Assembly: GCF_001297705.1 (NCBI RefSeq) | Contig: NZ_LIRF01000003.1 | Span: forward strand, 1,116,001-1,180,000 | Source: Chryseobacterium sp. ERMR1:04 | GTDB lineage: Bacteria > Bacteroidota > Bacteroidia > Flavobacteriales > Weeksellaceae | DNA length: 64,000 nucleotides | Reading direction: 5' to 3' | Shown: in pieces, positions 12,037-29,977 of the stretch | Layout: every line of letters begins with the position of its first letter | How positions within the stretch are numbered: the first letter of the stretch is position 1 | Translations under genes and position numbers: made by a program | Notes under the pieces: generated by a model | What the model was told of the DNA's origin: nothing | What the model saw: the letters and a program-made list of their open reading frames with translations, nothing else | The model's database searches: none

Positions 12037-12633
12037 CTAACCAAAAATTTTACCATCTACGATTTTTACAAAATTTTCCTTCTCTAATAATTTGACTGTT
12101 CGAATAACTGTCTCCGTTCTTAAACCAGTTAAAGAAGCTAATTGCTTTCTGGTGTAAGGTACCTCATAATCAAAAGGTTCAAGCAGTTCTTCAACGCTTT
12201 TGAGATAACTAATCACCGCAATAATTTTACTACGAGGATCACCATATGCCATTAAATTTATAAGCTTACGTTGATGATTTATATATAGAGAAGTAAACTG
12301 GTAAAGTTTGATTATTATTTCAGGATTTTTTTCTAACAGCTCAAAAAATTTTTCTCTACTTATTGCATATATATCCATGCTACTTAAAGCTATTGCATTA
12401 ATAGTATAGAAAGTTTCCGCACATAGATAAGTTTCCCCAACGGGCTCTCCCCTGCCTAGAATCTGATGTATAAATTCATTACTGCCAATTTTGTCACTTG
12501 CAATTTTTAAACTGCCCCTTTTGATTTGATAATAATATTGGGCATATGTTTCAGGACGAAGTAAATATTCACCTTTTTCTAAGGTTATCAGATGAGCCCC
12601 ATGAGTTTTCAGCAATCTTTCTTTAATGATCAT
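12037..12633 (-). CDS. Crp/Fnr-family transcriptional regulator, paralogue 2
   Basis: A 198-residue regulator of the same length and architecture as the one at 10632-11228: effector barrel about 15-115, dimerisation helix, and winged helix about 145-198 with TRKQLASLTGLRTETVIRT. The recognition helices of the two paralogues are almost identical, so they may bind overlapping sites. The effector pocket differs more, suggesting different signals. It faces paralogue 1 across decayed DNA. A TGA-N6-TCA element lies 116 bp upstream of its start, so it may be autoregulated or cross-regulated. Confidence 0.88.
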   Translation of the reverse strand: MIIKERLLKTHGAHLITLEKGEYLLRPETYAQYYYQIKRGSLKIASDKIGSNEFIHQILGRGEPVGETYLCAETFYTINAIALSSMDIYAISREKFFELLEKNPEIIIKLYQFTSLYINHQRKLINLMAYGDPRSKIIAVISYLKSVEELLEPFDYEVPYTRKQLASLTGLRTETVIRTVKLLEKENFVKIVDGKIFG

Positions 12634-12748
12634 AATCTGTAAATTTTAAAGATTAAGAAATTCTGATTACGTTTGAATAAAATAAACAGCTTTAAACCTC
12701 ATCCTTTGAATAGAATTGTAATATAGAAACAAGTTTTAACCCGTCATA

Positions 12749-12760
12749 TGATTTAAGTCA
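12749..12760 (-). promoter_or_regulatory. TGA-N6-TCA element upstream of the crp-like gene
   Basis: TGATTTAAGTCA lies in the 468-bp gap upstream of paralogue 2. At the distance where the other sites have a -7 box, only a poor TAnnTTTG match is seen (TATATTAC), so this is the weakest of the four sites. Confidence 0.3.
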
Positions 12761-12991
12761 CAATACCTACTGATGTAGAATGACAATGATTTCTTATGAA
12801 CGTTTAAATGGTAAATCTTTCTCTTAGATTGTTGTATAATTTTTTTATTATCAGTTATCTTTTTCATAAATGTTTTTTCTGATTTTTAATTTTCCTTAAA
12901 TGCAATCTATTATATGTTTTTGTAACCTCCTTAAAAGAGGGTTTCATATTTTCTACATCATCATTGTATCTGCAGTCTTATTATGAAAATA

Positions 12992-13020
12992 ATTGAGGCT
13001 ACTATTTAAGTAGCCTCAAT
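12992..13020 (-). terminator. Stem-loop terminator after the GG-leader peptide gene
   Basis: A perfect 12-bp inverted repeat, ATTGAGGCTACT / AGTAGCCTCAAT, with a 5-nt loop, lies 81 bp beyond the peptide stop codon. On the minus strand TATTTTCAT follows. Confidence 0.65.
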
Positions 13021-13101
13021 ATCGATTTTGTTTACGCTCATCACTATAGTTCTCAAAAATAACAGAACTTTACATACCATAAAGGATGAGCATGGAAACT
13101 C

Positions 13102-13281
13102 TTAATCAATGAGAATAGGACCATTGCTGCATGCTTGTCCTAATGGAATACATACTCCATTGCATTTATACGATGTATGTGGATTACAAGGACAATCTTT
13201 AGGTGGAATATTAGAACAGTTAACAATTCCTCCGTTTAAAGATCTTAATTCAAAACGAGAAAGTTTTTTTAAATTTTTCAT
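13102..13281 (-). CDS. GG-leader bacteriocin-like precursor peptide
   Basis: A 59-codon gene. The leader MKNLKKLSRFELRSLNGG ends in a double glycine, the processing site of peptidase-containing exporters, and is the form seen in flavobacterial bacteriocin-like or natural-product precursor families. The 41-residue core has six cysteines (21, 31, 33, 43, 47 and 54 of the precursor) and ends GPILID. It might form disulfides or be a RiPP substrate. No modification enzyme, exporter or immunity gene lies beside it, so maturation would need factors encoded elsewhere. A 15-base palindrome lies just upstream and a terminator downstream, supporting a real transcription unit. Confidence 0.75.
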   Translation of the reverse strand: MKNLKKLSRFELRSLNGGIVNCSNIPPKDCPCNPHTSYKCNGVCIPLGQACSNGPILID

Positions 13282-13295
13282 AGTTAAATAGTTTG

Positions 13296-13310
13296 TTAGT
13301 GATTCACTAA
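13296..13310 (-). promoter_or_regulatory. Palindrome just upstream of the GG-leader peptide start
   Basis: TTAGTGATTCACTAA is a perfect palindrome around its central base and ends 15 bp upstream of the ATG. Its position suggests an operator or 5'-leader structure; no protein can be assigned. Confidence 0.4.
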
Positions 13311-13492
13311 TTTAATAAAAAAGCAGCTAATAGTCAAAAAAAGTTCTATAAAAAACATAATGATAAGATAAATAATATTTTGTACTCAAAATCTAGCTGA
13401 CAATATCAATTAGAGTAGATCCTCAATTTTTTACACATCACTAATAAGAGGTATGTAATAGAATAATAGGAATTAGGATGAAGTACTCATCC

Positions 13493-14242
13493 CTATTGAT
13501 AAACCCCATTAATCTGTAAAACACCTTTAGCCATAAATTGATTTAAAGAACTTACTGATGGTGCAGGTCTAGCTATTGCTAAATCTGCAGATGCACTTCC
13601 TGCGGTATTTCTTCTTGTGGCATATATTTCTATTGTATGAGCTCCAACTGATAGATTTGATGATTGTCCTAAAACAGACCATTTATCAGTAGTACCTGAA
13701 AAACCATTTCCTGATATAGCAAACATTCTGGTGGCAATTAACTTTCCGTCTAAAAATATTCCTATAGCATAGGAAATAGTCATATCACCTGTCATTGCTG
13801 CAGCTGAATCATATTGAACCATCCCTTCTACTGAAATATTAATCGTATTACTTGGCTGAATAATATTCAAAGTTGATTGTAATCCCGATATCTTTATCCA
13901 ACTCCCATTTCCTGGTGTAATACTACTTGCCGGAACGCTATTTTCGTTATACGTAGTTGAACCTGTTTGTCCTGTTTGTGTAAGAAGCAATCCAGTGCTG
14001 TTACTTACAGAAGGTAAGACAAAGGTAAGATTACTTCTGTCAGTTGATGATTTTATCACTCCATTTGAATCAATCAATAAATAAGCTCCAGATCCCGCCT
14101 TTACGCCTTCAACTCTCAAGGGATCATTAGTTCCATTAGCTACAATATGCAGCATATTTTTTGGATTAGCAGTATTAATACCAACTTGAGCGAAGGTAGT
14201 TGCATAAGCTGAAAAAATTAATAAAAAGAATATTTTTTTCAT
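13493..14242 (-). CDS. Secreted protein of unknown function, tail-fibre-like start
   Basis: A 249-residue exported protein. The signal peptide MKKIFFLLIFSAYATTFAQ is cleaved before VGINTANPKNMLHI, a start repeated in many Bacteroidetes extracellular proteins. The rest is Ser/Thr/Gly-rich and predicted beta-rich (about 40-245), with a jelly-roll-like character but no catalytic motif. No T9SS C-terminal domain is evident. It lies 211 bp upstream of the GG-leader peptide on the same strand; a functional link is not shown. Function unknown. Confidence 0.7.
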   Translation of the reverse strand: MKKIFFLLIFSAYATTFAQVGINTANPKNMLHIVANGTNDPLRVEGVKAGSGAYLLIDSNGVIKSSTDRSNLTFVLPSVSNSTGLLLTQTGQTGSTTYNENSVPASSITPGNGSWIKISGLQSTLNIIQPSNTINISVEGMVQYDSAAAMTGDMTISYAIGIFLDGKLIATRMFAISGNGFSGTTDKWSVLGQSSNLSVGAHTIEIYATRRNTAGSASADLAIARPAPSVSSLNQFMAKGVLQINGVYQ

Positions 14243-14770
14243 TTTTAGTTTATTATTGTTAGAGTATAAATTAAGATTAAAAATAGCCTCTGGTATTCTT
14301 ATGTTTTTTTGGGATCTAAAGAAATTTAAGAGGCTAATAAAGTGTTCATCTATGTTCTTAGAATCCGAATAATTCTATGATTTAAATTCTACTATTTGTA
14401 TTTTTTAACACCAATAATTACCTGACAGAGTATTATTGATTATTTTATTAACTAAAAACACAATTTTCGTTAAAATTTTAATGGCGCAAAGTACCGATAT
14501 TTTACTATCAAATCACGTAGAATACGCATCGATATATATCGACAATAATGTAGATATTTATCGATAAAACAAGATTGAAACTTCATCGCAGTTTCTAATA
14601 AAATATTAACTGTCTAATGAGTATGTAAAGGGCGGATTAGCTTGTAAAACAATATAATTCTATCAGCTAATAAAAAATAGAAAAGAATACTACAAATTTC
14701 TGAATACCATATCAATACTTTAGTATTTTACATATTTAATTAATACAATCGTGATGTAACTTTTATGGTA
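14243..14770. other. Gene-free stretch with AT-rich palindromes
   Basis: No gene is seen in this gap. It contains the 14-bp palindrome TCGATATATATCGA (14529-14542) and the 10-bp palindrome TTATCGATAA (14558-14567) within 40 bp. Two ATCGAT-centred palindromes this close could be protein-binding sites for the secreted-protein promoter or part of an element end. Confidence 0.4.
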
Positions 14771-14802
14771 ATAGATGCTATGCTTTGTAGCATAGCATCT
14801 AT
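14771..14802 (-). terminator. Strong hairpin beyond the mob operon
   Basis: A perfect 14-bp stem, ATAGATGCTATGCT / AGCATAGCATCTAT, with a 4-nt loop lies 73 bp beyond the mobC stop. It is the natural candidate for the mob operon terminator, although only ATTACC and not a T-run follows. It could instead mark the element's left end. Confidence 0.5.
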
Positions 14803-14874
14803 TTGGATAGCACTTTTTATAAACATATTTTTCTGCTAAGTTTAAATTCTAGTAAGAACGCAGAATTATTTAGC

Positions 14875-16875
14875 TTACTTTTTAGTAATCAAATGTTGCA
14901 AATCAGGATCATTCTCAATACGCTTCAACTCCTTTTCAATAATAGCCACAACATCACTTTTTATTTTTTTATATTGGATATCAATTTGATGTTTCATAGT
15001 ATCCTCACCTTCTTCATTTACAAATGAGACAACATCTGGAATCTTCTGATAGTTCATGGTTTCAGCATGCACCTTTTCATTATCTACGACAATTTCAGCA
15101 TGAAACATTTTCTGTTCTATGCGTTCATTGTAATTATCAGACACCGCCCCTACGAAGATTCCCTGAGTCAATGTCGAAATCTTAGAGGCCGGAATAAGAC
15201 TGTCTAATTGCGTAGAAATTGAAGTTGATTTATCATTTCTGTTGATGGTCATACTTTGGCGTTTCTGCAAAACCTTCCCAAAACGTTCGGAAAGATTTTT
15301 AGCCGTCTCTCCAACGACCTGACCACTGAAAATATTACCTACCGTATTTTGTATCACTTTACTTTCCTTGTCTCCATAATCACGGGTTAATTGCGAAAAG
15401 TCCTGAAAGCCTAAACAAACCGCTACTTTATTACTTCTTGCTGTGGCAATAAGATGATCCAGCCCTCTAAAATAAATAGTAGGCAGCTCATCGATGATCA
15501 CCGAACTCTTCAATTGCCCTTTTTTATTAATAAGTTTTACAATCCTGGAATTATAAAGACCCAATGCCGCAGAATAAATATTTTGCCGGTCAGGATTATT
15601 TCCCACACAGAGTATCTTAGGTTCATTAGGGTTATTAATATCCAATGAAAAATCATCACCTGTCATCACCCAGTATAGCTGGGGTGAAATCATTCTTGAC
15701 AAAGGTATTTTTGCTGAAGCAATCTGACCTTGCAATTGATCTTGCGCTCCTCCCTGCCAGGCATCCATAAAAGGAGACAGGTAATTTTCTAATTCAGGGT
15801 AGGACGTTAGGATCGTAAACACATCAGAATATTTTTTGTTAAGCAATTCTATAGCATGAGGAAAAGTACAATAGGTACCACCGTCATATATCTTTAAAAA
15901 CCAAATAATAGCTGCCAACAGGATAATTGGAGATTCAACAAAGAAATCTCCCTGTTTTTGAATCCAGCTTCTGTTCAGATTCAGCATAATGGTATAGGCT
16001 GCTTCATAGGCATCAGAAATATCCGTCATAAAATCAGGATTTAAGGGATTACATCGGTGACTTTTTCTGGGGTCATCAAAATTGATGATGTAGAATGTAG
16101 GTTTTACTTTATACGCATTGTGATTTTTTAGCAAATGGTTATAGGCAATGGTAGAAAGATCATCAAATTTAAAATCATAGATATACATAGAAAAACCTTT
16201 TTCAATCTGCTGTTTGATGTAATTATTAATAATCGCATATGATTTTCCTGATCCGGGAGTTCCCAATACAATGGTTGCCCGAAATGGATTTACAATATTA
16301 ATCCAGCCATTATTCCACTTTCCTTTATAATAAAACCGAGTGGGAAGGTTGACTGAATATTCATTTTCCATCAATTGGGTTTCCTGCAAAAAACTTTCAT
16401 TCTCATGATTAAAAACATCATCCATCAGATTATGGGATAGCAGCCTACTCATCCATAAGCCCGCCATAAGAAGAATAATATATCCTATGCCCAACGTCAG
16501 CATATATAAGAAAGTACCGATAGATGAAGATAATTGAAATAGAGGGGTATTAAAAAAGTAAAGTATAAACCCTACGATTAAAGCAAGATTAATGTTAGAC
16601 CAGATAATCTTCTCATTTTTTACCCCTTTTGTTCCCAGACAGCTCAAGGCAAGCAATACCAGTGCAAATATTTTGGTATAGAGGGGATGGGAAAATAGTT
16701 TTGCTGTTTTTTGGAAATTGTACAATATGGTATTTATAATCTCGAGCGTCCATCCTCTTTCCATAAAAAAACCATAACAATACCAGTATAGATGCATCAA
16801 AAGAATGAGTATGCTCACTGCTCTCATGAAGGCCATAATCTTTGCTAAACCTCTTAAGTCATCTTCTCCCTGCAT
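14875..16875 (-). CDS. mobC: Conjugative coupling ATPase (MobC/TraG, VirD4-like)
   Basis: A 666-residue type IV coupling protein that links the relaxosome to the transfer channel. Four or so N-terminal membrane segments (about 12-37, 66-82, 96-112, 118-143) precede the ATPase domain. Walker A is GTPGSGKS (205-212) and a Walker B-like strand is SSVIIDELPTIYF, followed by the TraG motif ATARSNKVAVCLGFQDFSQL. It closes the mobA-mobB-mobC set, 152 bp beyond mobB. The start at 16875 gives a hydrophilic 11-residue N-terminus before the first membrane segment. Confidence 0.93.
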   Translation of the reverse strand: MQGEDDLRGLAKIMAFMRAVSILILLMHLYWYCYGFFMERGWTLEIINTILYNFQKTAKLFSHPLYTKIFALVLLALSCLGTKGVKNEKIIWSNINLALIVGFILYFFNTPLFQLSSSIGTFLYMLTLGIGYIILLMAGLWMSRLLSHNLMDDVFNHENESFLQETQLMENEYSVNLPTRFYYKGKWNNGWINIVNPFRATIVLGTPGSGKSYAIINNYIKQQIEKGFSMYIYDFKFDDLSTIAYNHLLKNHNAYKVKPTFYIINFDDPRKSHRCNPLNPDFMTDISDAYEAAYTIMLNLNRSWIQKQGDFFVESPIILLAAIIWFLKIYDGGTYCTFPHAIELLNKKYSDVFTILTSYPELENYLSPFMDAWQGGAQDQLQGQIASAKIPLSRMISPQLYWVMTGDDFSLDINNPNEPKILCVGNNPDRQNIYSAALGLYNSRIVKLINKKGQLKSSVIIDELPTIYFRGLDHLIATARSNKVAVCLGFQDFSQLTRDYGDKESKVIQNTVGNIFSGQVVGETAKNLSERFGKVLQKRQSMTINRNDKSTSISTQLDSLIPASKISTLTQGIFVGAVSDNYNERIEQKMFHAEIVVDNEKVHAETMNYQKIPDVVSFVNEEGEDTMKHQIDIQYKKIKSDVVAIIEKELKRIENDPDLQHLITKK

Positions 16876-17027
16876 TTCTTATTATTTAAAATCGGGAGTG
16901 AATATAAATTTTGCTATTCCTTCGAGAAGAAAACAGGAGACATTGGCTTTCAGATGGATACATTTGGCTTACAGCACAATATCTTAGCAAAAGAAAATAA
17001 ACAGACTGTATCTGTTGTAATTCTTTT

Positions 17028-18320
17028 TTAAAGATTTCGTTTCCTTCTTTTTTTCATCCGAGACGCAAATTGCAATTCCTGATCATCTTCATTTTGATTC
17101 AGATAGAATAGCCCGCCTACTCCATCAATAATTCCACTCATATCCTGATGATTACTTTGCGGGCTGTCTAAAAAACTAAACAAAGGATGGATACTATCCA
17201 ATAAAGAATCCTTATAATCTTCAACATTTAGAATTTCCGTCTTTTGATCAACGGTCTGTTTTACATCCGCCCCTATTTTTTGAGTCCATCTTTCATTAAA
17301 GGAATTGATAGAAAACTCTTTTCCCAAATGCGAACCATTCCACACTGTTTTAGAATGATGGTCAACAAATGTGATTCCGTATCGATGTCCATTATTATTT
17401 CTGCGGATTACAGTATTAATGCCTTGCTTCGTTAATATATTTTTAAAATCCTTTTCATTATTGGTAGATCTTATCGTATTTAAAATAGCTGTACTAAGAC
17501 TTAGTTTTGATGCATCATTTTTTAAGGTTTCTTTGCATTTAGTAAAATAATCCTCCAAAGCCGCCAGCCCTGAGTTTTTACCAAATAAAGATGCTTTGAA
17601 AGAATGCCCCATGCGCTCTCCTTTTGAGTTGAGTGGAAAATACAACAATCCGCTTTTCATCTTTCCGCTTAATTCACCTTCTGTCTTTTCAGCAGCAATA
17701 TTGAATAGAGAAAGAAGCGCATTGTATTCACCCAAAGATCGAAACTTATAATAACTGGGTAAATAACGAATAACAGAAGCAATCTGACTTTTCACATCAC
17801 CAGAGGCATATTCTACGGGACGAAAAATCTTTTCATTCCGACGTTGCTCTTTTTCCGTAGCAGGGATCAAGCTATACTTTTTTTCTATCTTTCGACAAAG
17901 ATTCATAGACCTTCTTTTTTCAAATGTATCCGAGATCTTTCTGCCTTCTTCGTCCACACACACAGATACGATATGGATATGAATACGATCGATATCCGTA
18001 TGCTTGAAAACCACAAAAGGTTGCTCTCCATACCCCATTTCCTGCATATAATCTTCCGCCATTTCTCTGAATTGATCATCACTTACCTTATCTTTAGGAT
18101 CAGGGTTAAGCGAAATATGTACGGTATGCTTCTCTGTATTTCGGTTCGCAACAAGATAAGATTCAAACGATTCTGTTAATTGAGAAACCGTATACTTCCT
18201 GTTAGGAGTTTCAATCATTCTGTTTGTAAGTAAAATCATTCCGCTCCCTCGTTCAATTTTGACATTATTATATGCCAATGCTCCATACAAATTACTTCCC
18301 CTTCCAATTTTTGCAATCAT
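17028..18320 (-). CDS. mobB: Relaxase (MobB, MobA/VirD2 family)
   Basis: A 430-residue relaxase that nicks and covalently binds the transfer origin. The N-terminal relaxase domain (about 1-180) has the metal-binding histidine cluster KHTDIDRIHIHIVSV (H107, H114, H116). The candidate catalytic Tyr lies near the N-terminus (Y12 or Y17). The C-terminal half is variable and ends in a basic RMKKRRKRNL tail. It follows mobA by 8 bp, as expected for a relaxosome pair. The start MIAKIGRGSNLYGALAYN is the standard N-terminus for the family. Confidence 0.93.
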   Translation of the reverse strand: MIAKIGRGSNLYGALAYNNVKIERGSGMILLTNRMIETPNRKYTVSQLTESFESYLVANRNTEKHTVHISLNPDPKDKVSDDQFREMAEDYMQEMGYGEQPFVVFKHTDIDRIHIHIVSVCVDEEGRKISDTFEKRRSMNLCRKIEKKYSLIPATEKEQRRNEKIFRPVEYASGDVKSQIASVIRYLPSYYKFRSLGEYNALLSLFNIAAEKTEGELSGKMKSGLLYFPLNSKGERMGHSFKASLFGKNSGLAALEDYFTKCKETLKNDASKLSLSTAILNTIRSTNNEKDFKNILTKQGINTVIRRNNNGHRYGITFVDHHSKTVWNGSHLGKEFSINSFNERWTQKIGADVKQTVDQKTEILNVEDYKDSLLDSIHPLFSFLDSPQSNHQDMSGIIDGVGGLFYLNQNEDDQELQFASRMKKRRKRNL

Positions 18321-18328
18321 AACACACT

Positions 18329-18769
18329 CTATTTTTTCAGATACTGCAGTTCAAATTCTTCTGTAAGCTTTATGATTTTTTGACATAAACCAGTCATTTC
18401 TACGGTCTGTTTTGCCAGTGTATTGAGTAGTGCAGTCGCTTTCTGTTCAGAATAATTGGTGTATAATACTTTCACCACTTGATTATAATTGACTCCCACA
18501 GCCCTAAACTGAGTATATAAAGAAGTTAATCTCATGTAAAAATCCATAGAGCCTTTATCAATTTTGACTGTTCTTATCTCACGGGAAAATAATGCGGAAA
18601 CAATAAACTTTGCTTTGTTTGTAAAGCCAGATGCTTCAAAAAGCTTCATCATTTTTATATTTTCCTCGTTGGTCAATCTAAAAACATGACGATAGATGCT
18701 GGGATTTATTTTAGGTTTTCGTCCCCCTCTATTTCTGTAATGATGATCTTTCTTATCCATTATATCCAT
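18329..18769 (-). CDS. mobA: Relaxosome accessory protein MobA
   Basis: A 146-residue basic protein with a ribbon-helix-helix-like N-terminus (RHVFRLTNEENIKMMKLF, about 28-45) and a helical C-terminus (about 75-140). Such MobA proteins bind oriT and help the relaxase in Bacteroidetes elements. It starts the mob operon and is separated from the candidate oriT by about 40 bp. An alternative start lies three codons in (18760). Confidence 0.85.
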   Translation of the reverse strand: MDIMDKKDHHYRNRGGRKPKINPSIYRHVFRLTNEENIKMMKLFEASGFTNKAKFIVSALFSREIRTVKIDKGSMDFYMRLTSLYTQFRAVGVNYNQVVKVLYTNYSEQKATALLNTLAKQTVEMTGLCQKIIKLTEEFELQYLKK

Positions 18770-18806
18770 TTTAAATACGTTAACAAACCTCGACTTCGGA
18801 GAGTGT

Positions 18807-18878
18807 TTGCCCCCCGGTAGGGCAAGTTGTTTTGAGGTACAAAAAAACAGTTATGAGGCACTCAAAACACAACTTGCC
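18807..18878. other. Candidate origin of transfer (oriT)
   Basis: Two nested inverted repeats lie just upstream of mobA. The first is TTGCCC / GGGCAA (18807-18825). The second is GGCAAGTTG...TTTTGAG paired with CTCAAAACACAACTTGCC (18821-18836 and 18861-18878), with a two-base bulge. The sequence is more GC-rich than its surroundings. Position beside the relaxosome genes and the dyad structure are what an oriT looks like, but the nick site cannot be read from sequence. Confidence 0.55.
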
Positions 18879-19109
18879 GTGTTCCTATGAACACCAAATA
18901 AAGCACTTATTGACTGAGTAAATAACGAAACAAAAACAACCAAAAGCAATTGACATTTTATTCATTAGCATTGAAAAAATTTATAAAACCTTCTTCAGTC
19001 AAAACATCTTACAAAGTAAAATCTCATGATGTTTTGATTGTAGTATAACAATCTGCCAAACACTTCCTTTCGATGACAAGATCTGCCCACATTATAAAAG
19101 TACCTATCA

Positions 19110-19225
19110 ATCTCCATTTCTTTGTCTTTACAGGATTGTACAGGGATATAATTAGTTAGGCATGTAAATATTTACATAGACCTCCATGCAGAAGAATAGG
19201 GACAGATACCTATTGAAATGGAGAT
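19110..19225. promoter_or_regulatory. Nested dyad upstream of the tra operon
   Basis: The perfect 16-bp palindrome ATGTAAATATTTACAT (19162-19177) lies at the centre of a wider dyad with 11-bp arms ATCTCCATTTC (19110-19120) and GAAATGGAGAT (19215-19225). The two symmetry centres differ by only 2 bp. The region is about 210 bp upstream of traA and is a plausible operator for tra control or a partition site for the ParA-like TraA. The other sequence between 18879 and 19437 shows no gene. Confidence 0.5.
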
Positions 19226-19437
19226 CTCTGAGCAGATAGTTCTATATGAACGAATGTATGTACATCCATCAGTACAATGGTACAATAAGTACTTACCTGC
19301 TTAAAGCTCTCCTTATATATGCAACTGTATAGAAAGCTTTGTACATATGTATACCTTTAAGATACTACCAATATACATGAGATAAAATATAACTGAAGTT
19401 ATACATCAATACATACATAATTAAAAATATTGAAAAT

Positions 19438-20205
19438 ATGAATTCACAACACAGCACAAAATTTATTGCTTTTTCTTCCCAAAAAGGAGGTGTCGGAAAA
19501 AGTACATTTACAACTTTAATAGGAAGTATCTTACATTATCGCCTTGGGTATAATATTGCCGTATTCGATGTCGATTTTCCACAACATAGCTTAATAAAAA
19601 TGAGGTCCCGTGATCTTGTAACGGTAATGGAAAATGAAAATTTCAAAAAGCTTGCTTATAAACAATTTACCACCATCAACAAAAAAGCATACCCCATTAT
19701 TCAAGGTAAGGCTGAGAGTGTACTGGATGCCGCTCAAGAATTTATAAACAACTCCTCTATGCCTATCGATATCATTTTCTTTGATCTGCCGGGAACTGTG
19801 AATACTCCAGGCATTCTGAATACCTTAGCAGCCATGCATCATATTTTCACTCCAATCACAGCAGACCGCCTGGTCATGGAGAGTACATTGATTTTCACAC
19901 AGCTGCTCCAAGATGTTATCATGAAAAAAGGAGGAACTTCTATAGAAACAATCCATCTCTTTTGGAATCAGGTTGACGGACGAGAAACAACTCCTTTGTA
20001 TAAAACCTATGATCAACTTATTAAACATTTGGGCTTAAACCTGATGCAAAGCCAGGTCAAGAACAGCAGTCGTTTCCGTAAAGAAAGTGAGGTGAATAGT
20101 AAAGTGGTCTTCCGTTCTACACTACTCCCTCCAGATGAGCGTTTGATGAAAGCCAGTCAGCTGGATCTTTTTATCAATGAATTTTTAAAAATCATTCAAT
20201 TATAG
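19438..20205 (+). CDS. traA: ParA-family ATPase TraA
   Basis: A 255-residue ParA/MinD-type ATPase. The deviant Walker A KGGVGKST lies at about residues 16-23, and the FDLPGT Walker B-like segment near 118. Such proteins open the tra operons of Bacteroidetes elements; a role in element maintenance or positioning of the transfer apparatus is assumed by family. The next gene starts 4 bp after its stop. Confidence 0.9.
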   Translation: MNSQHSTKFIAFSSQKGGVGKSTFTTLIGSILHYRLGYNIAVFDVDFPQHSLIKMRSRDLVTVMENENFKKLAYKQFTTINKKAYPIIQGKAESVLDAAQEFINNSSMPIDIIFFDLPGTVNTPGILNTLAAMHHIFTPITADRLVMESTLIFTQLLQDVIMKKGGTSIETIHLFWNQVDGRETTPLYKTYDQLIKHLGLNLMQSQVKNSSRFRKESEVNSKVVFRSTLLPPDERLMKASQLDLFINEFLKIIQL

Positions 20206-20209
20206 CGAT

Positions 20210-20641
20210 ATGGAGAAAAATACTACTAAAAAAATAACACCCGATATCGATGAAGAACTGATGATGAATCTGATGGTTGACGGCGTTAAAAAAGAAGGTT
20301 TAGAGATTCAGCCAGTACATATCGTAGAAAATGAAAAATCTAAGTTTGAAACCGTACCGCAGGGAAAACTTATTCCTAAAGAAAAGAGCAAAGTAAAAAG
20401 AACCATTGAAATAGATTACGAAAGCACTTTTTTAAGAAAAACAGATACCAATGCCCGTGATGGTAAGACCGTTTATATAAGACCCGATTTCCATGAAAAG
20501 CTATCTCGCATAGTACAGGTTATTGGTGAGGATAAGTTCACTATTTATGCTTATTTAGACAATTTACTCTCCTATCACTTTCAAGAATTTGGGGATCAGA
20601 TCATCAAAAGTTTTAATGATAAATACAAACCAATTTTATAG
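20210..20641 (+). CDS. traB: Conjugal transfer protein TraB-like (DUF3408)
   Basis: A 143-residue hydrophilic protein. Residues about 80-143 (VYIRPDFHEKLSRIVQVIG and LDNLLSYHFQEF) match DUF3408, a small conserved domain of Bacteroidetes conjugation operons with a ribbon-helix-helix-like look. The N-terminal half is charged and probably disordered. It is tightly packed between traA and the next gene. A DNA-binding or partition partner role for TraA is an inference from position. Confidence 0.75.
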   Translation: MEKNTTKKITPDIDEELMMNLMVDGVKKEGLEIQPVHIVENEKSKFETVPQGKLIPKEKSKVKRTIEIDYESTFLRKTDTNARDGKTVYIRPDFHEKLSRIVQVIGEDKFTIYAYLDNLLSYHFQEFGDQIIKSFNDKYKPIL

Positions 20642-20643
20642 CT

Positions 20644-21264
20644 ATGGAAACGATCATCTTCTTATGTCTTCTGATTGTCATTGCATTGCTTTTGCATGAT
20701 AAGATTTTCAAAAAAAATTCGAAACAAAAAATGCCAAAGGAAAAACTCAATCTGGATACCCACATGCTGGGTCATCCTAAATCTGTAATAAGCTTGTCAA
20801 AAGAGAAGAATTTTATCGAAACACAGATTCATAAGCCAACTATTAATTCTGACAGTACAAATGTGGAATCCGATCAAAATAACATTCAAAATATTAATGA
20901 AAAACAAGAAAATACATCCAATACCCAACTTGATTTTAATGCGGAGGAAGAAGAATTTAAAAAACAGAGAGTTTCACGTTCGGACCACAGTTTAGCACAA
21001 GGGATTACCGGTGAAGAATTTAATGCTGCGAAGATACTCCTGCAAAAAGATAAAGTATACTTACCTGAGCAAGAGACATCAACAGCTCTACTTCAAAAGA
21101 TACACGGTACAGAGCTATTCAATTTATTGGAAAGCTCTATAGAGGGAGCCTCACAAAAAATAGCAGAACTGTTAGATAACAGCTTTCCTCCTGAAGCTGA
21201 TATACATACTTCCTTATTCCTAAAAGATGATTTAAACAATTTTGATATCGAAGAATTTATTTAA
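20644..21264 (+). CDS. traD: Conjugal transfer protein TraD-like, single membrane anchor
   Basis: A 206-residue protein with one N-terminal membrane segment (about 3-20, IIFLCLLIVIALLLHDKIF) followed by a long acidic, polar linker and a conserved C-terminal part (about 118-200, ITGEEFNAAKILLQ). Position between DUF3408 and traE genes corresponds to traC/traD of Bacteroidetes elements. The exact letter is uncertain. It starts 2 bp after the previous stop. Confidence 0.6.
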   Translation: METIIFLCLLIVIALLLHDKIFKKNSKQKMPKEKLNLDTHMLGHPKSVISLSKEKNFIETQIHKPTINSDSTNVESDQNNIQNINEKQENTSNTQLDFNAEEEEFKKQRVSRSDHSLAQGITGEEFNAAKILLQKDKVYLPEQETSTALLQKIHGTELFNLLESSIEGASQKIAELLDNSFPPEADIHTSLFLKDDLNNFDIEEFI

Positions 21265-21453
21265 TTAATAAATCGTTGGAAAAGAAAACACTAACCGTAA
21301 TACGTTGGTATTTTTTTATTCATTAATGGAAGCCAATGACTGCCAAACAACTCCTGTAAACGACTATTTATCAGAACCCATCTATTTCCATAACATCTTT
21401 GTCAGCAGACCTGTAAGGTGCAGGATCACAATAATAAATTTCATGTTTTAGTT

Positions 21454-21759
21454 ATGGAGAAACAAAGAGAAAAACTACTGATGGTAAGTTTAAGCTTACT
21501 TGTAACGACAGCAGCTCTCGCCCAAGGCAACGGTACGGCAGGGATCAATGAGGCCACCCAAATGGTAACTTCTTATTTTGAACCCGCTACCCAACTTATC
21601 TATGCCATTGGCGCAGTAGTCGGATTGATTGGAGGAGTCAAGGTCTACAATAAATTCAGCAGTGGAGATCCTGACACCAGCAAAACAGCAGCAAGTTGGT
21701 TTGGCGCCTGTATATTCCTCATCGTAGCGGCAACTATACTCCGTTCATTCTTCCTTTAA
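21454..21759 (+). CDS. traE: Conjugal transfer protein TraE (DUF4134, VirB2/B3-like)
   Basis: A roughly 101-residue exported membrane protein with an N-terminal signal-like stretch ending TTAALAQ and two membrane helices (about 45-65 and 80-98). This is the DUF4134 pattern, thought to be the pilin-like VirB2 counterpart. The ATG at 21454 (MEKQREKLL) is chosen because family members start with a short basic segment; an upstream GTG at 21418 would add 12 residues. The 189-bp gap to the preceding gene could hold a secondary promoter. Confidence 0.85.
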   Translation: MEKQREKLLMVSLSLLVTTAALAQGNGTAGINEATQMVTSYFEPATQLIYAIGAVVGLIGGVKVYNKFSSGDPDTSKTAASWFGACIFLIVAATILRSFFL

Positions 21760-21766
21760 AAAGATA

Positions 21767-22102
21767 TTGATGAATACATATAACATCAACAACGGCATCG
21801 GAAGAACCGTAGAGTTCAAAGGATTAAAAGCACAGTACCTGTTTATTTTTGCAGGAGGATCACTCGGAATACTTATTCTTTTAATGATCATGTATATGGC
21901 AGGAGTCCGCAGTTACATCTGTCTTTTTATGGGAGGTGTAACAAGCGGCGTTTTAATAGGACAGACTTTTTCACTGAACAGGAAATATGGGGAACATGGT
22001 CTGATGAAATTACGTGCTGGGAAGAAGCATCCGCGATACATCATTAACCGAAAACCCATATTCAGAATCCTCAGAATCATTTCTAAAAAAGAGGCAGCAT
22101 GA
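21767..22102 (+). CDS. traF: Conjugal transfer protein TraF (DUF4133, VirB3-like)
   Basis: A 111-residue protein with two adjacent membrane helices (about 24-47 and 50-65), a basic cytoplasmic C-terminus and the NINNGIGRTVEFKGLKAQY start typical of DUF4133. It corresponds to VirB3, which anchors the VirB4 ATPase. Its stop codon overlaps the start of traG by 4 bp. Confidence 0.88.
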   Translation: MMNTYNINNGIGRTVEFKGLKAQYLFIFAGGSLGILILLMIMYMAGVRSYICLFMGGVTSGVLIGQTFSLNRKYGEHGLMKLRAGKKHPRYIINRKPIFRILRIISKKEAA

Positions 22103-24606
22103 GAAATACTTCCAAAACATCAACCCTGGAGAGTAAATTTCCATTGCTGGCAGTAGAAGATAGTTGCATTATCTCAAAAGAGGCAGATATCACCATTTGT
22201 TTTAAGGTGAGGTTACCTGAACTTTTTACGGTGGCATCAGCAGAATATGAAGCCATTCATTCCACCTGGCATAAAGCCATAAAAACATTACCTGATTTCA
22301 GTATCGTTCACAAGCAGGATTGGTACATCAAAGAAAACTACCAACCTGATCTGTCACAAGACAGCCAAAGCTTTCTTTCAAGATCTTTTGAACGTCATTT
22401 TAATGAAAGACCTTTTCTCAATCATTACTGTTACTTGTTTATCACCAAAACGAGTAAAGAACGGATGAGAAGCCAAAGTAACTTTTCATCACTTTGTAAA
22501 GGAACTCTTATTCCCAAAGAACTAAGGGATAAAGAAACGATCAGCAGATTCATGGAATCAGTTGATCAATTCGAAAGGATTATGAACGACAGTGGCTACA
22601 TCCATATGGAAAAAATGACAACAGATGAGATCACTGGAACTCAAAATCAATCAGGACTGTTAGATCAGTATCTTACGTTATCGAGAGAAACAGGTACTCC
22701 GCTTCAGGATTTGGCACTGGGATCTGAAGAGATGCGGATTGGTAATAATCGGATCAGTATGCATACACTCTCTGACACAGATGACCTTCCGGGGAGTGTA
22801 TCCTCTCATATGAGATATGAAAAATTAAGCACAGACCGAAGTGACTGTTTATTATCCTTTGCTTCTCCCGTTGGACTTTTACTGAACTGTAATCATGTTT
22901 ATAATCAATACATATTCATAGATAACAGTGATGAAAATTTAAGCAAATTTGAAAAATCTGCCAGAAATATGCATTCGTTGGCCAGATACAGCAGAGCCAA
23001 TCAGATCAATAAAGAATGGATTGAAAAATATCTCAATGAGGCACATTCTTATGGTCTGCAATCCATTAGGGCGCATTTTAACGTAATGTCCTGGTCAGAC
23101 AATCCTTTTGAGCTCAAACAACTTAAAAATGATACCGGAAGTGCATTAGCACTTATGGAATGTAAGCCCAGACATAACACAACAGATGTAGCAACATTGT
23201 ATTGGTCAGGCATGCCTGGTAATGCAGGAGATTTTCCAAGTGAAGAAAGTTTCTATACCTTCATCGAACCTGCATTATGTTTTTTCACTGAGGAAACCAA
23301 TTATCAGAATTCACCGTCCCCTTTTGGAATTAAAATGGCAGACCGTCTTACCGGTAAACCGATTCATCTGGATATCTCTGATCTTCCGATGAAGCAGGGA
23401 ATTATTACGAACCGGAATAAATTTATTTTGGGCCCTTCAGGGAGTGGTAAGTCATTCTTCACCAATCACATGGTCAGACAGTATTATGAGCAGGGCGCAC
23501 ATGTTCTTTTGATAGACACCGGAAATTCTTATCAGGGTTTATGTGAACTTATAAAGGGAAAAACTAAAGGAGAAGATGGAGTTTACTTTACCTATACCGA
23601 AGATCATCCCATCGCCTTTAATCCTTTTTATACCGATGACGGCGTATTTGATATAGAAAAAAGAGAAAGTATTAAAACGTTGATTCTTACCCTGTGGAAA
23701 AGAGATGATGAACCGCCTACCCGCTCTGAAGAAGTTGCCTTATCGAATGCGGTAAGCGGATATATCGAGCAAATCAAAAAAAATGAGACCACTCCTTCTT
23801 TCAATGGTTTTTATGAGTATGTTAAAGACGGTTACCTGTTGATTCTGGAGCAAAAGAAAGTCCGTGAAAAAGATTTTGATATCGCCAATTTTCTCAATGT
23901 TTTAGAGCCGTATTATAAAGGTGGTGAATATGATTACCTCCTCAATTCGGACCAGCAGCTTGATCTACTATCCAAACGATTTATCGTATTTGAGATCGAT
24001 GCGATAAAAGATCATAAAATTTTATTTCCGATTGTCACCATTATCATTATGGAAGGCTTTATCAACAAAATGAGAAGGCTAAAAGGAATCCGAAAAATGA
24101 TACTGATTGAAGAGGCGTGGAAAGCTATTGCTAAAGAAGGAATGGCTGAATACATCAAATACCTGTTCAAAACTGTAAGAAAATTCTTTGGCGAAGCTAT
24201 TGTGGTAACGCAGGAGGTCGATGATATCATTCATTCTCCGATTGTTAGAGAAAGTATCATCAACAGTTCTGACTGTAAGATCTTATTGGATCAGCGTAAG
24301 TACATGAACAAGTTTGATGATATTCAGGCTATGCTTGGTCTTACAGATAAGGAAAAAGCACAGGTTCTTTCTATTAATATGAATAATGATTCGGGCAGGT
24401 TATATAAAGAAGTTTGGATCGGATTAGGAGGAACACACTCAGCAGTATATGCAACAGAAGTCTCCACAGAAGAGTATCTCGCTTACACTACAGAAGAAAC
24501 TGAAAAATTGGAAGTCATGAATCTGGCTTCAGAACTTGACGGTAATATGGAACATGCCATCAAGAGGATTTCTCTTAGAAGAATAAAATCGAACAAAGAA
24601 AATTAA
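22099..24606 (+). CDS. traG: Conjugation ATPase TraG (VirB4-like)
   Basis: An 835-residue ATPase that energises assembly of the transfer channel. The N-terminal part (about 1-430) is the VirB4/CagE-type domain. Walker A is GPSGSGKS (445-452) and Walker B is KMILIEEAWKAI near 670, followed by FGEAIVVTQEVDDI. Length and order are complete, with no frameshift. It overlaps traF by 4 bp, so translation is coupled. Confidence 0.95.
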   Translation: MRNTSKTSTLESKFPLLAVEDSCIISKEADITICFKVRLPELFTVASAEYEAIHSTWHKAIKTLPDFSIVHKQDWYIKENYQPDLSQDSQSFLSRSFERHFNERPFLNHYCYLFITKTSKERMRSQSNFSSLCKGTLIPKELRDKETISRFMESVDQFERIMNDSGYIHMEKMTTDEITGTQNQSGLLDQYLTLSRETGTPLQDLALGSEEMRIGNNRISMHTLSDTDDLPGSVSSHMRYEKLSTDRSDCLLSFASPVGLLLNCNHVYNQYIFIDNSDENLSKFEKSARNMHSLARYSRANQINKEWIEKYLNEAHSYGLQSIRAHFNVMSWSDNPFELKQLKNDTGSALALMECKPRHNTTDVATLYWSGMPGNAGDFPSEESFYTFIEPALCFFTEETNYQNSPSPFGIKMADRLTGKPIHLDISDLPMKQGIITNRNKFILGPSGSGKSFFTNHMVRQYYEQGAHVLLIDTGNSYQGLCELIKGKTKGEDGVYFTYTEDHPIAFNPFYTDDGVFDIEKRESIKTLILTLWKRDDEPPTRSEEVALSNAVSGYIEQIKKNETTPSFNGFYEYVKDGYLLILEQKKVREKDFDIANFLNVLEPYYKGGEYDYLLNSDQQLDLLSKRFIVFEIDAIKDHKILFPIVTIIIMEGFINKMRRLKGIRKMILIEEAWKAIAKEGMAEYIKYLFKTVRKFFGEAIVVTQEVDDIIHSPIVRESIINSSDCKILLDQRKYMNKFDDIQAMLGLTDKEKAQVLSINMNNDSGRLYKEVWIGLGGTHSAVYATEVSTEEYLAYTTEETEKLEVMNLASELDGNMEHAIKRISLRRIKSNKEN

Positions 24607-24625
24607 TCATTTACAATTTACGACA

Positions 24626-25258
24626 ATGAAAAATATAATAATAACAATACTAATCTCAGTATTTATTGGTGCCACAACCTATGCGAAAGCACAATTTGTA
24701 GTCACCGATCCAACGAATCTTGCCTCTGGAATTCTGAATTCTGCCAATGAAATTGTGCAGACTTCCAATACCGTCTCTAATGTGGTCAAAAATTTTAATG
24801 AAGTTAAAAAAGTGTACGAACAAGGCAAAGAGTATTATGATAAGCTTAAAGCCATCAATAATTTAATAAAGGATGCCCGAAAGGTTCAGCAGACCGTCTT
24901 GCTTGTAGGTGATGTATCCGAAATGTATGTTCATAATTTTGGAAAGATGCTCAATGATCCCAATTTTAATACACAGGAACTTACCGCTATTGCCAATGGA
25001 TATTCTGCCCTACTAACAGAGAGTACAGAACTTCTTAAAGAGTTGAAACAAATTGTAAGTACAACCAATCTGTCTCTTAATGACAAGGAACGTATGGATG
25101 TAATTGACAGAGTATACAAAGAGGTCAAAGAGTATCACAATCTGGTTCGCTACTACACGAACAAGAATATTTCTGTAAGCTATTTACGAGCTAAAAAACA
25201 GAACAATACCGAAAGGGTCTTACAACTGTATGGAACTTCAAATCAAAAATACTGGTAA
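24626..25258 (+). CDS. traI: Conjugal transfer protein TraI (DUF4141, VirB5-like)
   Basis: A 210-residue exported protein with a signal peptide (about 1-22, ending TYAKA) and a helical, coiled-coil body rich in K/E. This is the DUF4141 pattern, equivalent to VirB5-type periplasmic pilus components. The segment NSANEIVQTSNTVSNVVKNF is typical of the family. It ends 1 bp before the chosen traJ start. Confidence 0.87.
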   Translation: MKNIIITILISVFIGATTYAKAQFVVTDPTNLASGILNSANEIVQTSNTVSNVVKNFNEVKKVYEQGKEYYDKLKAINNLIKDARKVQQTVLLVGDVSEMYVHNFGKMLNDPNFNTQELTAIANGYSALLTESTELLKELKQIVSTTNLSLNDKERMDVIDRVYKEVKEYHNLVRYYTNKNISVSYLRAKKQNNTERVLQLYGTSNQKYW

Positions 25259-25259
25259 A

Positions 25260-26252
25260 ATGGAGACGAATAACTTACACGAAGTATTGCGCTTGGTTTA
25301 CGAAGAAATGATGCCTTTATGTGCGGATATGGCAGCAGTAGCAAAAGGCGTCGCTGGATTAGGGGCATTATTCTATGTGGCTATTAAAGTTTGGCAGGCA
25401 TTGAGCCGCGCTGAACCGATTGACCTGTTTCCTATGTTACGGCCTTTTGCTATTGGAATCTGTATCATGTTTTTCTCCACTATCGTGTTGGGAAGTATCA
25501 ATGGTGTATTAAGTCCAATCGTTCAGGGGAGTCATTCAATGCTTGAAGGTCAGGTTTTAGATCTCAATGCGCTGCAGCAGAAAAAAGATCTGCTAGAAAG
25601 AGAGGCAACGTTACGAAATCCCGAGATGGCTTATTTGATCTCTGATGAAGAGTTTGATAAGAAGCTGGAAGAGCTGGGTTGGTCACCTTCAGACCTAATA
25701 ACGATGTCGGGAATGTATATTGAAAGAAAGATGTTTTCTATTAAAAAAGATATTCGGGATGGATTTCGTGAATTTTTGGAAATTTTATTTCAGTCAGCCG
25801 CACTTGTCATTGACACGATACGAACTTTCTTTTTGATTGTATTGGCTATACTAGGACCTATTGCTTTTGCCATCTCCGTCTGGGATGGTTTTCAAAGCAC
25901 ATTAACGCAGTGGCTCACTCGTTATATCAGTGTTTACCTATGGCTTCCGGTTGCAGATATATTCAGTGCGATACTGGCTAAGATCCAATCTCTGATTATT
26001 GAAAAAGATATTGAAATACTGGCTGATCCCAATTTTATTCCTGATACTTCTAACACAGTTTATATCATTTATATGATTATTGGAATCATAGGATATTTTA
26101 CGGTTCCGACCGTTACTGGCTGGATAATACAGGCAGGCGGAGCAGGAAATTTCACACGCAATGTAAATCAGATCGCACAAAAATCGGGAAATATTGCGGG
26201 AGCCGCGGCAGGCTCAGCTATAGGAAATATATCTGAAAGATTACTTAAATAA
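25260..26252 (+). CDS. traJ: Conjugal transfer membrane protein TraJ (VirB6-like)
   Basis: A 330-residue polytopic inner-membrane protein. Hydrophobic segments occur near residues 35-55, 65-85, 180-200, 215-240 and 265-290. The start METNNLHEVLRLVYEEMMP at 25260 matches the usual N-terminus better than the upstream ATG at 25230, which would overlap traI. The family is the VirB6-like channel component of the Bacteroidetes T4SS. Confidence 0.92.
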   Translation: METNNLHEVLRLVYEEMMPLCADMAAVAKGVAGLGALFYVAIKVWQALSRAEPIDLFPMLRPFAIGICIMFFSTIVLGSINGVLSPIVQGSHSMLEGQVLDLNALQQKKDLLEREATLRNPEMAYLISDEEFDKKLEELGWSPSDLITMSGMYIERKMFSIKKDIRDGFREFLEILFQSAALVIDTIRTFFLIVLAILGPIAFAISVWDGFQSTLTQWLTRYISVYLWLPVADIFSAILAKIQSLIIEKDIEILADPNFIPDTSNTVYIIYMIIGIIGYFTVPTVTGWIIQAGGAGNFTRNVNQIAQKSGNIAGAAAGSAIGNISERLLK

Positions 26253-26268
26253 TTAAAATCTCATCACA

Positions 26269-26892
26269 ATGGAATTTAAAATCTTAAGAAATATTGAAAA
26301 CAGTTTTAAGCAAATCAGGTTATTTACCTTTGTTTTTACCCTGCTATGCTTTGGTGTGGTTGCTTTAGTTGTTTATCAATCTTACCATTTCGCAGAAGAG
26401 CAGCGAAAGAAAATTTATGTTTTGGATAATGGTAAATCACTGATGGTAGCACTCTCTCAGGATATGTCAATCAACCGACCTGTGGAAGCTAGAGAACATG
26501 TAAGACGTTTTCATGAATTGTTCTTTACCATGTCTCCCGACAAAAATGCCATAGAAAGCAATATGAAAAGAGCATTCAATCTTGCTGACCAATCTGCTTT
26601 CAACTATTATAAAGACCTTTCTGAAAAAGGGTACTATAACAGGATCATCTCAGGAAATGTACAGCAAAGAATTGAGATTGACAGTGTTGTTGCCAATTTC
26701 AACAGCTATCCTTATGAGGTAAAAACGTTTGCTCGACAATTCATTATCAGATCAAGTAATCTTACAAAACGAAGCCTTATTACCCACTGTGAATTGGTTA
26801 ATTCAGTACGATCAGACAGTAATCCTCAGGGATTTATCATTGAAAAATTTAACGTCGTTGAAAATAAGGATGTTGAAACCGTAGACCGATAA
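26269..26892 (+). CDS. traK: Conjugal transfer protein TraK (VirB8-like)
   Basis: A 207-residue protein with a short cytoplasmic N-terminus, one membrane helix (about 18-40) and a periplasmic domain (about 60-205). The start MEFKILRNIENSFKQIR and the segment REHVRRFHELFFTM are standard for TraK. It corresponds to VirB8, the assembly scaffold of the channel. It continues the tra operon with a 16-bp gap. Confidence 0.92.
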   Translation: MEFKILRNIENSFKQIRLFTFVFTLLCFGVVALVVYQSYHFAEEQRKKIYVLDNGKSLMVALSQDMSINRPVEAREHVRRFHELFFTMSPDKNAIESNMKRAFNLADQSAFNYYKDLSEKGYYNRIISGNVQQRIEIDSVVANFNSYPYEVKTFARQFIIRSSNLTKRSLITHCELVNSVRSDSNPQGFIIEKFNVVENKDVETVDR

Positions 26893-26902
26893 ATAAATCA
26901 TT

Positions 26903-27184
26903 ATGAAAAAGTTGAATAAAGCAATTGATCAATATATAAAGAATGTAGAACAACATTGGAAAGCAATACCTGAAAAACGCCAACGGATATTAACAAAAAT
27001 ATTTTTTACAGGATATACACTGCTTACCATTAGTATTATCCTTCAGAATTGGTTAAAAGAAGGGAGTCGTAAAAACATTCCTCTTGGAGGACATATCAGT
27101 ACTGTTCTGAGAGGATTGAACGTAAAGACAGAATCAGCGGAAGTTAAGCTTATTAACCATCAACAAAAATCAGAAAATGAATGA
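26903..27184 (+). CDS. traL: Conjugal transfer protein TraL-like
   Basis: A 93-residue protein with one membrane helix (about 31-48) and a basic N-terminus. Small TraL/DUF3989 proteins occupy exactly this position between TraK and TraM. The body is poorly conserved, so the name rests mostly on position. Its 3' end overlaps traM by 8 bp. Confidence 0.65.
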   Translation: MKKLNKAIDQYIKNVEQHWKAIPEKRQRILTKIFFTGYTLLTISIILQNWLKEGSRKNIPLGGHISTVLRGLNVKTESAEVKLINHQQKSENE

Positions 27185-28490: not shown

Positions 28491-28507
28491 ATAACAAATT
28501 TAAAACA

Positions 28508-29407
28508 ATGAACATTATACTAAAAAAATGGCTGGTATTTATCTTACTCTCATTTTCAATGAGCTTATTGAGTTCTCAGGAAATGCAGGAATCTACCTCC
28601 TTGAACGATGCAAAATTAGAACCTTTCAAACTGGAAGTAACTTATAATAAAACAACTCATTTAATATTTCCATCACCGATACGATATGTTGATTTAGGAA
28701 GTGAAAATCTTATAGCCAACAAAGCGGAAGATGTGGGAAATGTTCTCCGAATAAAAGCAGGTATCAATGGTTTTGAAGAAGAAACTAACTTTTCAGTTAT
28801 TACTCAGGACGGTAAATTTTACAATTTTGATGTATTATATAGTCCCCATCCTAATACGCTGAATTATGATCTTCTTAAATTACATCAAACGCAAGAAAAA
28901 GAATATTCTACGGATGTACAATTTGAAGAACTTAAAGGAAACTCATCTTCACTTAATGAAGCAATTATGAAAACGCTGTATGAAAATCCTAAAAGAACCA
29001 TTACGCATATCGGTATCAAAAGTTTTGGAATCCGGTTTTTATTAAAGTCTTTGTATATATATGAAGGAAAGTTTTACTTTATTTTTCAAATGACGAATAA
29101 AAGTAATATATCGTATGATATCGACTTTATCAACTTCAAAATTATAGATAAAAAAAATCTCAAACGTACCATTATTCAAGAGAAAATATTAACTCCTCTT
29201 CGCATCTATCCTATTATTAACGCTGTAAGTAATCAAGCTTCCTCAATTGTTCTCTATCTGTTAGATCAATTCACACTGTTTGATGATCAGATACTGGAAA
29301 TAGAAGTTTTTGAAAAAAATGGGGGACGTCATCAGAAGATCGAAGTTGAAAATATTGATCTGATCAATGCAAAAATAGTTAGAGATATTCACTTAAAAAT
29401 GAAATAA
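28508..29407 (+). CDS. traN: Conjugative transposon protein TraN (DUF4138, VirB9-like)
   Basis: A 299-residue exported protein with a signal peptide (about 1-24) and the DUF4138 body. The conserved start of the mature part, LEVTYNKTTHLIFPSPIRYVD, and VLRIKAG are family hallmarks. It corresponds to VirB9, the outer-membrane-side partner of TraM. It ends 1 bp before traO. Confidence 0.92.
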   Translation: MNIILKKWLVFILLSFSMSLLSSQEMQESTSLNDAKLEPFKLEVTYNKTTHLIFPSPIRYVDLGSENLIANKAEDVGNVLRIKAGINGFEEETNFSVITQDGKFYNFDVLYSPHPNTLNYDLLKLHQTQEKEYSTDVQFEELKGNSSSLNEAIMKTLYENPKRTITHIGIKSFGIRFLLKSLYIYEGKFYFIFQMTNKSNISYDIDFINFKIIDKKNLKRTIIQEKILTPLRIYPIINAVSNQASSIVLYLLDQFTLFDDQILEIEVFEKNGGRHQKIEVENIDLINAKIVRDIHLKMK

Positions 29408-29408
29408 G

Positions 29409-29966: not shown

Positions 29967-29977
29967 AGAAAATTATT

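What the first reader, a model, noticed from the sequence alone, without database searches (positions are those of the whole stretch)
13102..13281. Cysteine-rich GG-leader peptide without neighbouring maturation genes
The 59-codon gene has a classical double-glycine leader, six cysteines in the core, a palindrome at the start and a terminator. It is short enough to be missed by gene callers. No exporter or modifying enzyme is adjacent.
Basis: partly seen in the sequence, partly recalled or inferred. Interest (0 to 1): 0.55.

Follow-up and report, generated by a model that had tools for sequence, protein, structure and literature searches.

The report
Orphan disulfide-rich bacteriocin-like peptide gene
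This is a real small gene for a probably secreted, cysteine-rich peptide of a Chryseobacterium-like bacterium, one of about 27 in its genome that probably share a single export and disulfide-forming machine encoded elsewhere, most likely as weapons against related bacteria.

Summary
The gene is on the minus strand (13281 to 13102): 59 aa, an 18-aa double-glycine leader, a 41-aa core with six cysteines, and a hairpin terminator downstream. It matches the known NCBIfam leader family NF047798 (leader_Chryseo, "bacteriocin-like protein"). It is under purifying selection (dN/dS about 0.1); 19 aligned relatives all keep six core cysteines, with GG in 16 and GA in 3. In this genome 27 such leaders score over the cut-off; all 27 cores have at least two cysteines, 26 an even number. 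The genome has one exporter with a C39 leader peptidase, on another contig, in a locus VKOR-thioredoxin / two leader peptides / C39-ABC exporter / HlyD. Across 173 genomes of the genus, leaders track the VKOR-thioredoxin oxidase (both 159, oxidase only 3, leaders only 1, neither 10), but only 4 independent pairs on well-supported branches back this (p 0.125). In one genome a 62%-identical relative lies in the leader cluster 5' of the VKOR gene. Best reading: exported, cleaved and oxidised in trans by that hub, probably as an antibacterial peptide. The peptide is a new member of a known kind; the layout, many peptides and one oxidase hub, is the interesting part. No activity is shown.

The parts
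13102..13281 (-). Precursor peptide gene, 59 codons plus stop
   Evidence: dN/dS 0.10-0.12 to three relatives
13228..13281 (-). 18-aa double-glycine leader MKNLKKLSRFELRSLNGG, family NF047798
   Evidence: 33.9 bits vs cut-off 23.5, residues 1-18
13105..13227 (-). 41-aa six-cysteine core; predicted mature peptide, 4290.945 Da with three disulfides
   Evidence: cleavage and disulfides are inferred
13307..13314 (-). -7-like promoter motif TAAATTAG (TANNTTNG)
   Evidence: the motif is within 90 nt upstream of 13 of 26 own-genome leader genes vs 13.5% of single-base shuffles; chosen after seeing the sequences; its role as a Bacteroidetes -7 box is recalled, not from a call
13296..13310 (.). Palindrome TTAGTGAATCACTAA, overlaps the -7-like motif; possible operator, not conserved intact
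12992..13020 (-). Intrinsic-terminator-like hairpin, 12-bp perfect stem (scored on either strand)

Best explanation
The gene makes a precursor whose leader is recognised and cut after Gly18 by a C39-ABC exporter encoded elsewhere in the genome (G000 contig C8), while the VKOR-thioredoxin protein of the same locus makes three disulfides in the 41-aa core; HlyD carries the path through the periplasm. The mature peptide is most likely a small antibacterial (bacteriocin-like) peptide aimed at related bacteria. Shown: a real gene, conserved leader and six Cys, the hub locus with intact motifs, association of leaders with the oxidase. Inferred: cleavage, export, disulfides, use of this hub by this peptide, and the antibacterial role.
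For: Leader family hit. Six core Cys in 20 of 20 aligned members, GG/GA 17/3. dN/dS 0.07-0.17 in 10 pairs. 27 leaders over cut-off in the genome: core Cys 12.4% vs 0.82% in 44 long window ORFs; 27 of 27 have 2 or more Cys, 26 of 27 an even number (p 4e-7). Single C39 exporter over cut-off, with DCGPTC, H and D motifs; VKOR-thioredoxin with exactly six Cys in three pairs, kept in 5 of 5 compared. The two genes flank two leader peptides. Leaders of the two hub-linked peptides share 10 and 12 of 18 residues with the window leader, cores 1 and 3 of 40 without gaps. Genus: oxidase-and-leader table 159, 3, 1, 10 of 173, p 6e-13. In G143 a relative 62% identical to the window peptide sits in the leader cluster 5' of the VKOR gene. 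14 of 20 members weakly match Bacteriocin_IIc, best E 0.0036. Precedent: bacteroidetocins, GG-processed, disulfide-like on gels, weakened by deletion of the adjacent thiol oxidoreductase (PMC6671954, section 8 and passages).
Against: No transcript, mass or activity data. Phylogenetic support is thin: on a one-gene tree of 30 chosen genomes only 4 independent pairs on well-supported branches, median p 0.125. G069 has four Cys-bearing leaders but neither oxidase (E up to 1e-20) nor exporter (E up to 1e-150). Seven leaderless, oxidase-less genomes still have a related C39 exporter, and other genomes hold up to seven C39 domains, so the single-exporter argument is clean only for the own genome. 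The core is neutral (charge -0.2 at pH 7) whereas bacteroidetocins A and B are basic (+6, +2). No immunity gene was looked for.
Confidence: 0.62

Rival explanations
1. A secreted signalling peptide (pheromone) matured the same way, read by a two-component system.
For: In G143, G001 and G040 a pair of genes that look like a histidine kinase and a LuxR-type response regulator are divergent from the leader cluster beside the VKOR gene; only the G143 pair was scanned, and its best family hits are below those families' cut-offs.
Against: No such pair was seen by eye among the own-genome hub ORFs or beside the window gene; 27 leader peptides in one genome with unlike cores suit an arsenal better than one signal.
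Confidence: 0.15
2. A secreted disulfide-rich inhibitor or host-directed peptide, e.g. a small protease inhibitor.
For: Profile search of solved structures gives only the insect metalloproteinase inhibitor IMPI (E 0.13, 0.16) and an LRP1 fragment (E 0.26); the IMPI match is to the C-x-C ... G-x-C-I-P stretch.
Against: Those E-values are not significant; no inhibitor family among the 7 Pfam families matched by any of 20 members at E up to 5; the structure model is too poor to compare (mean pLDDT 63).
Confidence: 0.1
3. A relic: gene stranded in a variable region and no longer exported.
For: In 15-17 kb around its three closest relatives only the peptide gene and at most 41 bp upstream match the window; the own ribD-yigZ site, the family's usual home, is empty.
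Against: dN/dS about 0.1, intact leader, promoter-like motif, terminator, and an intact hub in the same genome.
Confidence: 0.1

Closest known systems
NCBIfam NF047798 leader_Chryseo ('bacteriocin-like protein')
   Same: Leader matches over the full 18 positions, 33.9 bits vs cut-off 23.5
   Different: The model covers the leader only; the six-Cys core reaches no Pfam or NCBIfam family of its own
Bacteroidetocins (proposed class IIf bacteriocins, PMC6671954; section 8 and passages seen)
   Same: Bacteroidetes GG-leader peptide with paired Cys and a core of 41 (there 42) aa; thiol oxidoreductase and C39-ABC exporter in the genome
   Different: Leader 18 aa rather than 15-16, six Cys rather than four in A and B, neutral rather than basic, maturation genes not adjacent, target unknown; sequences not compared here
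Chryseoviridin / graspetide loci of Chryseobacterium (PMC8939145, passages)
   Same: RiPP precursors of the same genus; the paper says the GG peptidase is not typically encoded in ATP-grasp loci
   Different: Those cores are tied by ATP-grasp ligases; none among the 15 window proteins scanned

Membership tests
NF047798 leader_Chryseo | score over curated cut-off | tested here: met
   33.9 vs 23.5 bits
Double-glycine leader peptide cut by a C39 exporter | GG or GA at the cleavage site kept in homologues | tested here: met
   17 GG and 3 GA of 20
Double-glycine leader peptide cut by a C39 exporter | C39-ABC exporter in the genome | tested here: met
   one over cut-off, contig C8
Double-glycine leader peptide cut by a C39 exporter | cleavage observed | not testable with these tools
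   needs mass spectrometry
Bacteroidetocin (class IIf) | adjacent thiol oxidoreductase and C39-ABC genes (and TM protein) | tested here: not met
   own-genome C39 exporter and VKOR-thioredoxin are on contig C8, window on C3; a separate TM protein was not searched for
Bacteroidetocin (class IIf) | 15-16 aa leader | tested here: not met
   18 aa by the family model; feature from PMC6671954 passages
Bacteroidetocin (class IIf) | kills Bacteroidetes | not testable with these tools
   needs assay
Class IIa bacteriocin | YGNGVXC motif | tested here: not met
   core reads YKCNGVC and the stretch varies in relatives; motif from PMC6671954
Lanthipeptide / graspetide | modifying enzyme beside the precursor | tested here: not met
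   none among the 15 window proteins scanned, which include the nearest four on either side that reach 150 aa; 29 further ORFs of 150 aa or more were not scanned

The most novel reading that the evidence does not exclude
Chryseobacterium genomes run a dispersed arsenal: dozens of diverse disulfide peptides per genome (27 here, up to at least 46) sharing one leader code and served in trans by one conserved oxidase-plus-exporter hub, so that a single 180-bp gene moved anywhere in the genome is a ready-to-use new secreted peptide.
Probability: 0.55. Interest if true: 0.62.

Novelty: new member of a known kind. Interest (0 to 1): 0.42.

Why it matters
It turns an apparent orphan into a testable case of trans maturation: one oxidase and one exporter may serve dozens of peptides. 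If so, searches that require exporter and peptide side by side would miss most such peptides here (25 of the 27 own-genome leaders lie outside the hub locus), and the hub offers a single genetic switch to reveal them by mass spectrometry.

Tried and rejected
Fold of the core: AlphaFold gave mean pLDDT 63.4, pTM 0.35; no fold search was run. Fold of the VKOR-thioredoxin protein: mean pLDDT 45.4, not used. The idea that its N-terminus is a degenerate C39 domain that docks leaders: comparison with the exporter's C39 domain gave probability 0.3 (of 100) and E 0.21, C39 family E 0.105; unsupported. Mobile carriage: no relative in plasmids or phages (E up to 0.01) or viral contigs. Attachment-site repeat between 34.3-35.0 kb and 12.6-14.9 kb: only short matches, none convincing, so whether the gene is inside the conjugative element is open. 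Palindrome as a shared operator: not intact upstream of L045-L047. DUF805b RNA as its regulator: the window has only the tRNA at gathering score. Papers: searches with the family name or accession, and Chryseobacterium, VKOR, vitamin K epoxide reductase, C39 and double-glycine in combinations, listed no paper whose title or abstract start dealt with this family; DUF805b, none. The library is open-licence only.

Full report
Identity of the feature. The ORF of 13102-13281 reads on the minus strand. Its first 18 residues match NF047798 leader_Chryseo at 33.9 bits (cut-off 23.5); the only other NCBIfam hit, CCPGW_fam, is far below its cut-off and covers the leader, and Pfam gives none. A terminator-like perfect hairpin lies at 12992-13020 and a palindrome at 13296-13310 that overlaps a TAAATTAG motif 33 nt before the ATG. 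TANNTTNG occurs within 90 nt upstream of 13 of 26 own-genome leader genes, against 13.5% of single-base shuffles; I chose the motif after seeing the sequences, and its role as a -7 box is recalled. The palindrome therefore looks like promoter plus first transcribed bases; an operator is possible but not supported by conservation.

Is it real. Relatives at E up to 1e-6 occur in 25 of 173 genomes of the genus, the own genome included. A profile of 20 members finds 61 of 320 genomes of the family at E up to 1e-8, all in one genus of 33; the weaker ones were not checked for the six-Cys pattern. The alignment holds the window peptide and 19 of the 26 relatives fetched; all 20 have six core Cys. Left out were L050 (same peptide as L049), L062 (no ATG at the match start) and L064-L068; read by eye, L050, L062, L064, L065 and L066 also have six, L067 and L068 have eight. 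Nei-Gojobori dN/dS is 0.07-0.17 in 10 pairs, 0.10-0.12 for the window gene against L045, L046 and L047; dS is high in several, so the values are approximate.

Where it sits. Of the 18 best relatives (L045-L062), 12 lie between ribD and a yigZ-like gene, one (L055) shows only the yigZ-like side, and five (L045, L046, L047, L056, L057) lie elsewhere (gene names from reading, not from a family search). In the own genome ribD and the yigZ-like gene are 5 bp apart with no peptide between. The window copy lies between a Crp-family regulator and a protein without Pfam match, next to a conjugative element with TraG, relaxase, TraJ, TraM and a recombinase and tRNA-Arg. Around its three nearest relatives only the peptide gene and at most 41 bp upstream match the window. 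So the family has a stable orphan home in many species and has moved in others.

The rest of the repertoire. The own genome has 27 leaders over cut-off, one of them only with its frame neighbours; one search gives 26. In those 27, core Cys is 143 of 1157 residues (12.4%) against 0.82% in 44 long ORFs of the window; 27 of 27 have two or more, 26 of 27 an even number (the core is everything after residue 18 from the start of the model match). Among 25 with an aligned start the site is GG in 20, GA in 2, AG, GD and GS in one each. In 160 of 173 genomes of the genus at least one leader passes; the largest count is 46 (three genomes), a lower bound because one search scored at most 49 candidates a genome.

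The hub. One Peptidase_C39 domain in the own genome passes its cut-off. Around it lie, in one direction, a GLPGLI protein, a large protein with sub-cut-off carboxypeptidase-regulatory hits, a VKOR-thioredoxin fusion, two leader peptides, the C39-ABC exporter and an HlyD-family protein. The fusion has exactly six Cys: a loop pair, CRVC and CGFC, kept in the five proteins compared with CRIC in one. The order VKOR, leader, C39-ABC was also read by eye from coordinates in 15 other genomes (G003, G005, G019, G040, G044, G050, G051, G068, G071, G083, G094, G102, G147, G154, G157). Those lists are partial, so this is no census; G038 has its listed leaders before the VKOR gene instead. Other genomes are not as simple as the own one: 0 to 7 C39 domains and 0 to 5 oxidase hits per genome.

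Association. Oxidase (E up to 1e-20) is in 162 of 173 genomes, leaders in 160, both in 159, neither in 10, oxidase only in 3 (G030, G089, G137), leaders only in 1 (G069); Fisher p 6e-13. On a closer look G089 and G137 have weak leader hits (14.6-19.7 bits, cut-off 23.5) whose peptides are Cys-rich, and G030's oxidase hit is weak (4.9e-37); the same search also rings below cut-off in 2 of 14 control genomes, so the weak hits prove little. G069 stays an exception. Re-reading the three that way gives p 1.6e-16, a choice made after seeing them. Leaders against exporter (E up to 1e-150) is weaker: 158, 10, 2, 3, p 0.003. These p-values treat genomes as independent. On a tree of one TPR protein for 30 genomes (13 leaderless, G069, 16 others that I chose) the oxidase changes 7 times and leaders 8 times; four independent pairs on supported branches, leaders going the same way in 3.6 on average and the other way in 0.0 (in a few pairings one pair goes the other way), p 0.125-0.625. 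The direction fits; the events are too few for proof.

Linking the orphan to the hub. In G143 the relative L056 (62% identical) lies in a run of leader peptides on the VKOR gene's strand, about 2.4 kb 5' of it; the exporter there is some 12 kb further on. More distant relatives L063, L066, L069 and L070 lie in the same kind of cluster in G031, G001, G040 and G143. Hub-linked own-genome leaders share 10 and 12 of 18 residues with the window leader, cores 1 and 3 of 40.

Function. Bacteroidetocins give the nearest worked example: no leader fragments but many fragments starting right after GG were found by mass spectrometry, migration changes on reduction, deletion of the adjacent oxidoreductase or TM gene weakens activity, and they act on Bacteroidales (PMC6671954; section 8 and passages). 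Their target BamA was seen only in a search listing (PMC8546649). The window peptide fails two of their defining features (adjacent genes, leader length), so it is not filed there, though it may work alike. Antibacterial action is an inference by analogy, and signalling or inhibition remain open.

Noticed in passing
L074-L078 (hub regions of G143, G001, G031, G040); L024:1447-1482; L036:1572-1606: DUF805b cis-regulatory RNA (RF02914) sits 17-21 nt upstream of leader peptide genes: 10 of 12 distinct sites over gathering score in five hub regions of four genomes. In the own genome 2 of 30 leader loci (L009-L038) have it over gathering score, one being the first hub-linked leader, plus L034 below it. 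The loci were chosen because the motif had been seen.
   Followed up: partly
G143 and G031 hub regions (L074:5125-6063 and 12430-15522; L077:10155-13266): A thiopeptide-type bacteriocin biosynthesis protein (TIGR03891, over cut-off) and a grasp-with-spasm-like ATP-grasp (below its cut-off) lie between exporter and VKOR in G143; G031 has ORFs like the former by eye. The hub may serve several peptide classes.
   Followed up: partly
G069 (L168, L171, L174, L176): Four leader peptides with 2-6 Cys but no VKOR-thioredoxin or close C39 exporter.
   Followed up: partly
G004, G018, G036, G037, G060, G105, G110: Related C39-ABC exporter present but neither VKOR-thioredoxin nor leaders over cut-off: what it exports there is unknown.
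   Followed up: no
window 14875-34813: Conjugative element genes (TraG, relaxase, TraJ, TraM, DUF4138) up to a recombinase and tRNA-Arg; left boundary not found.
   Followed up: partly
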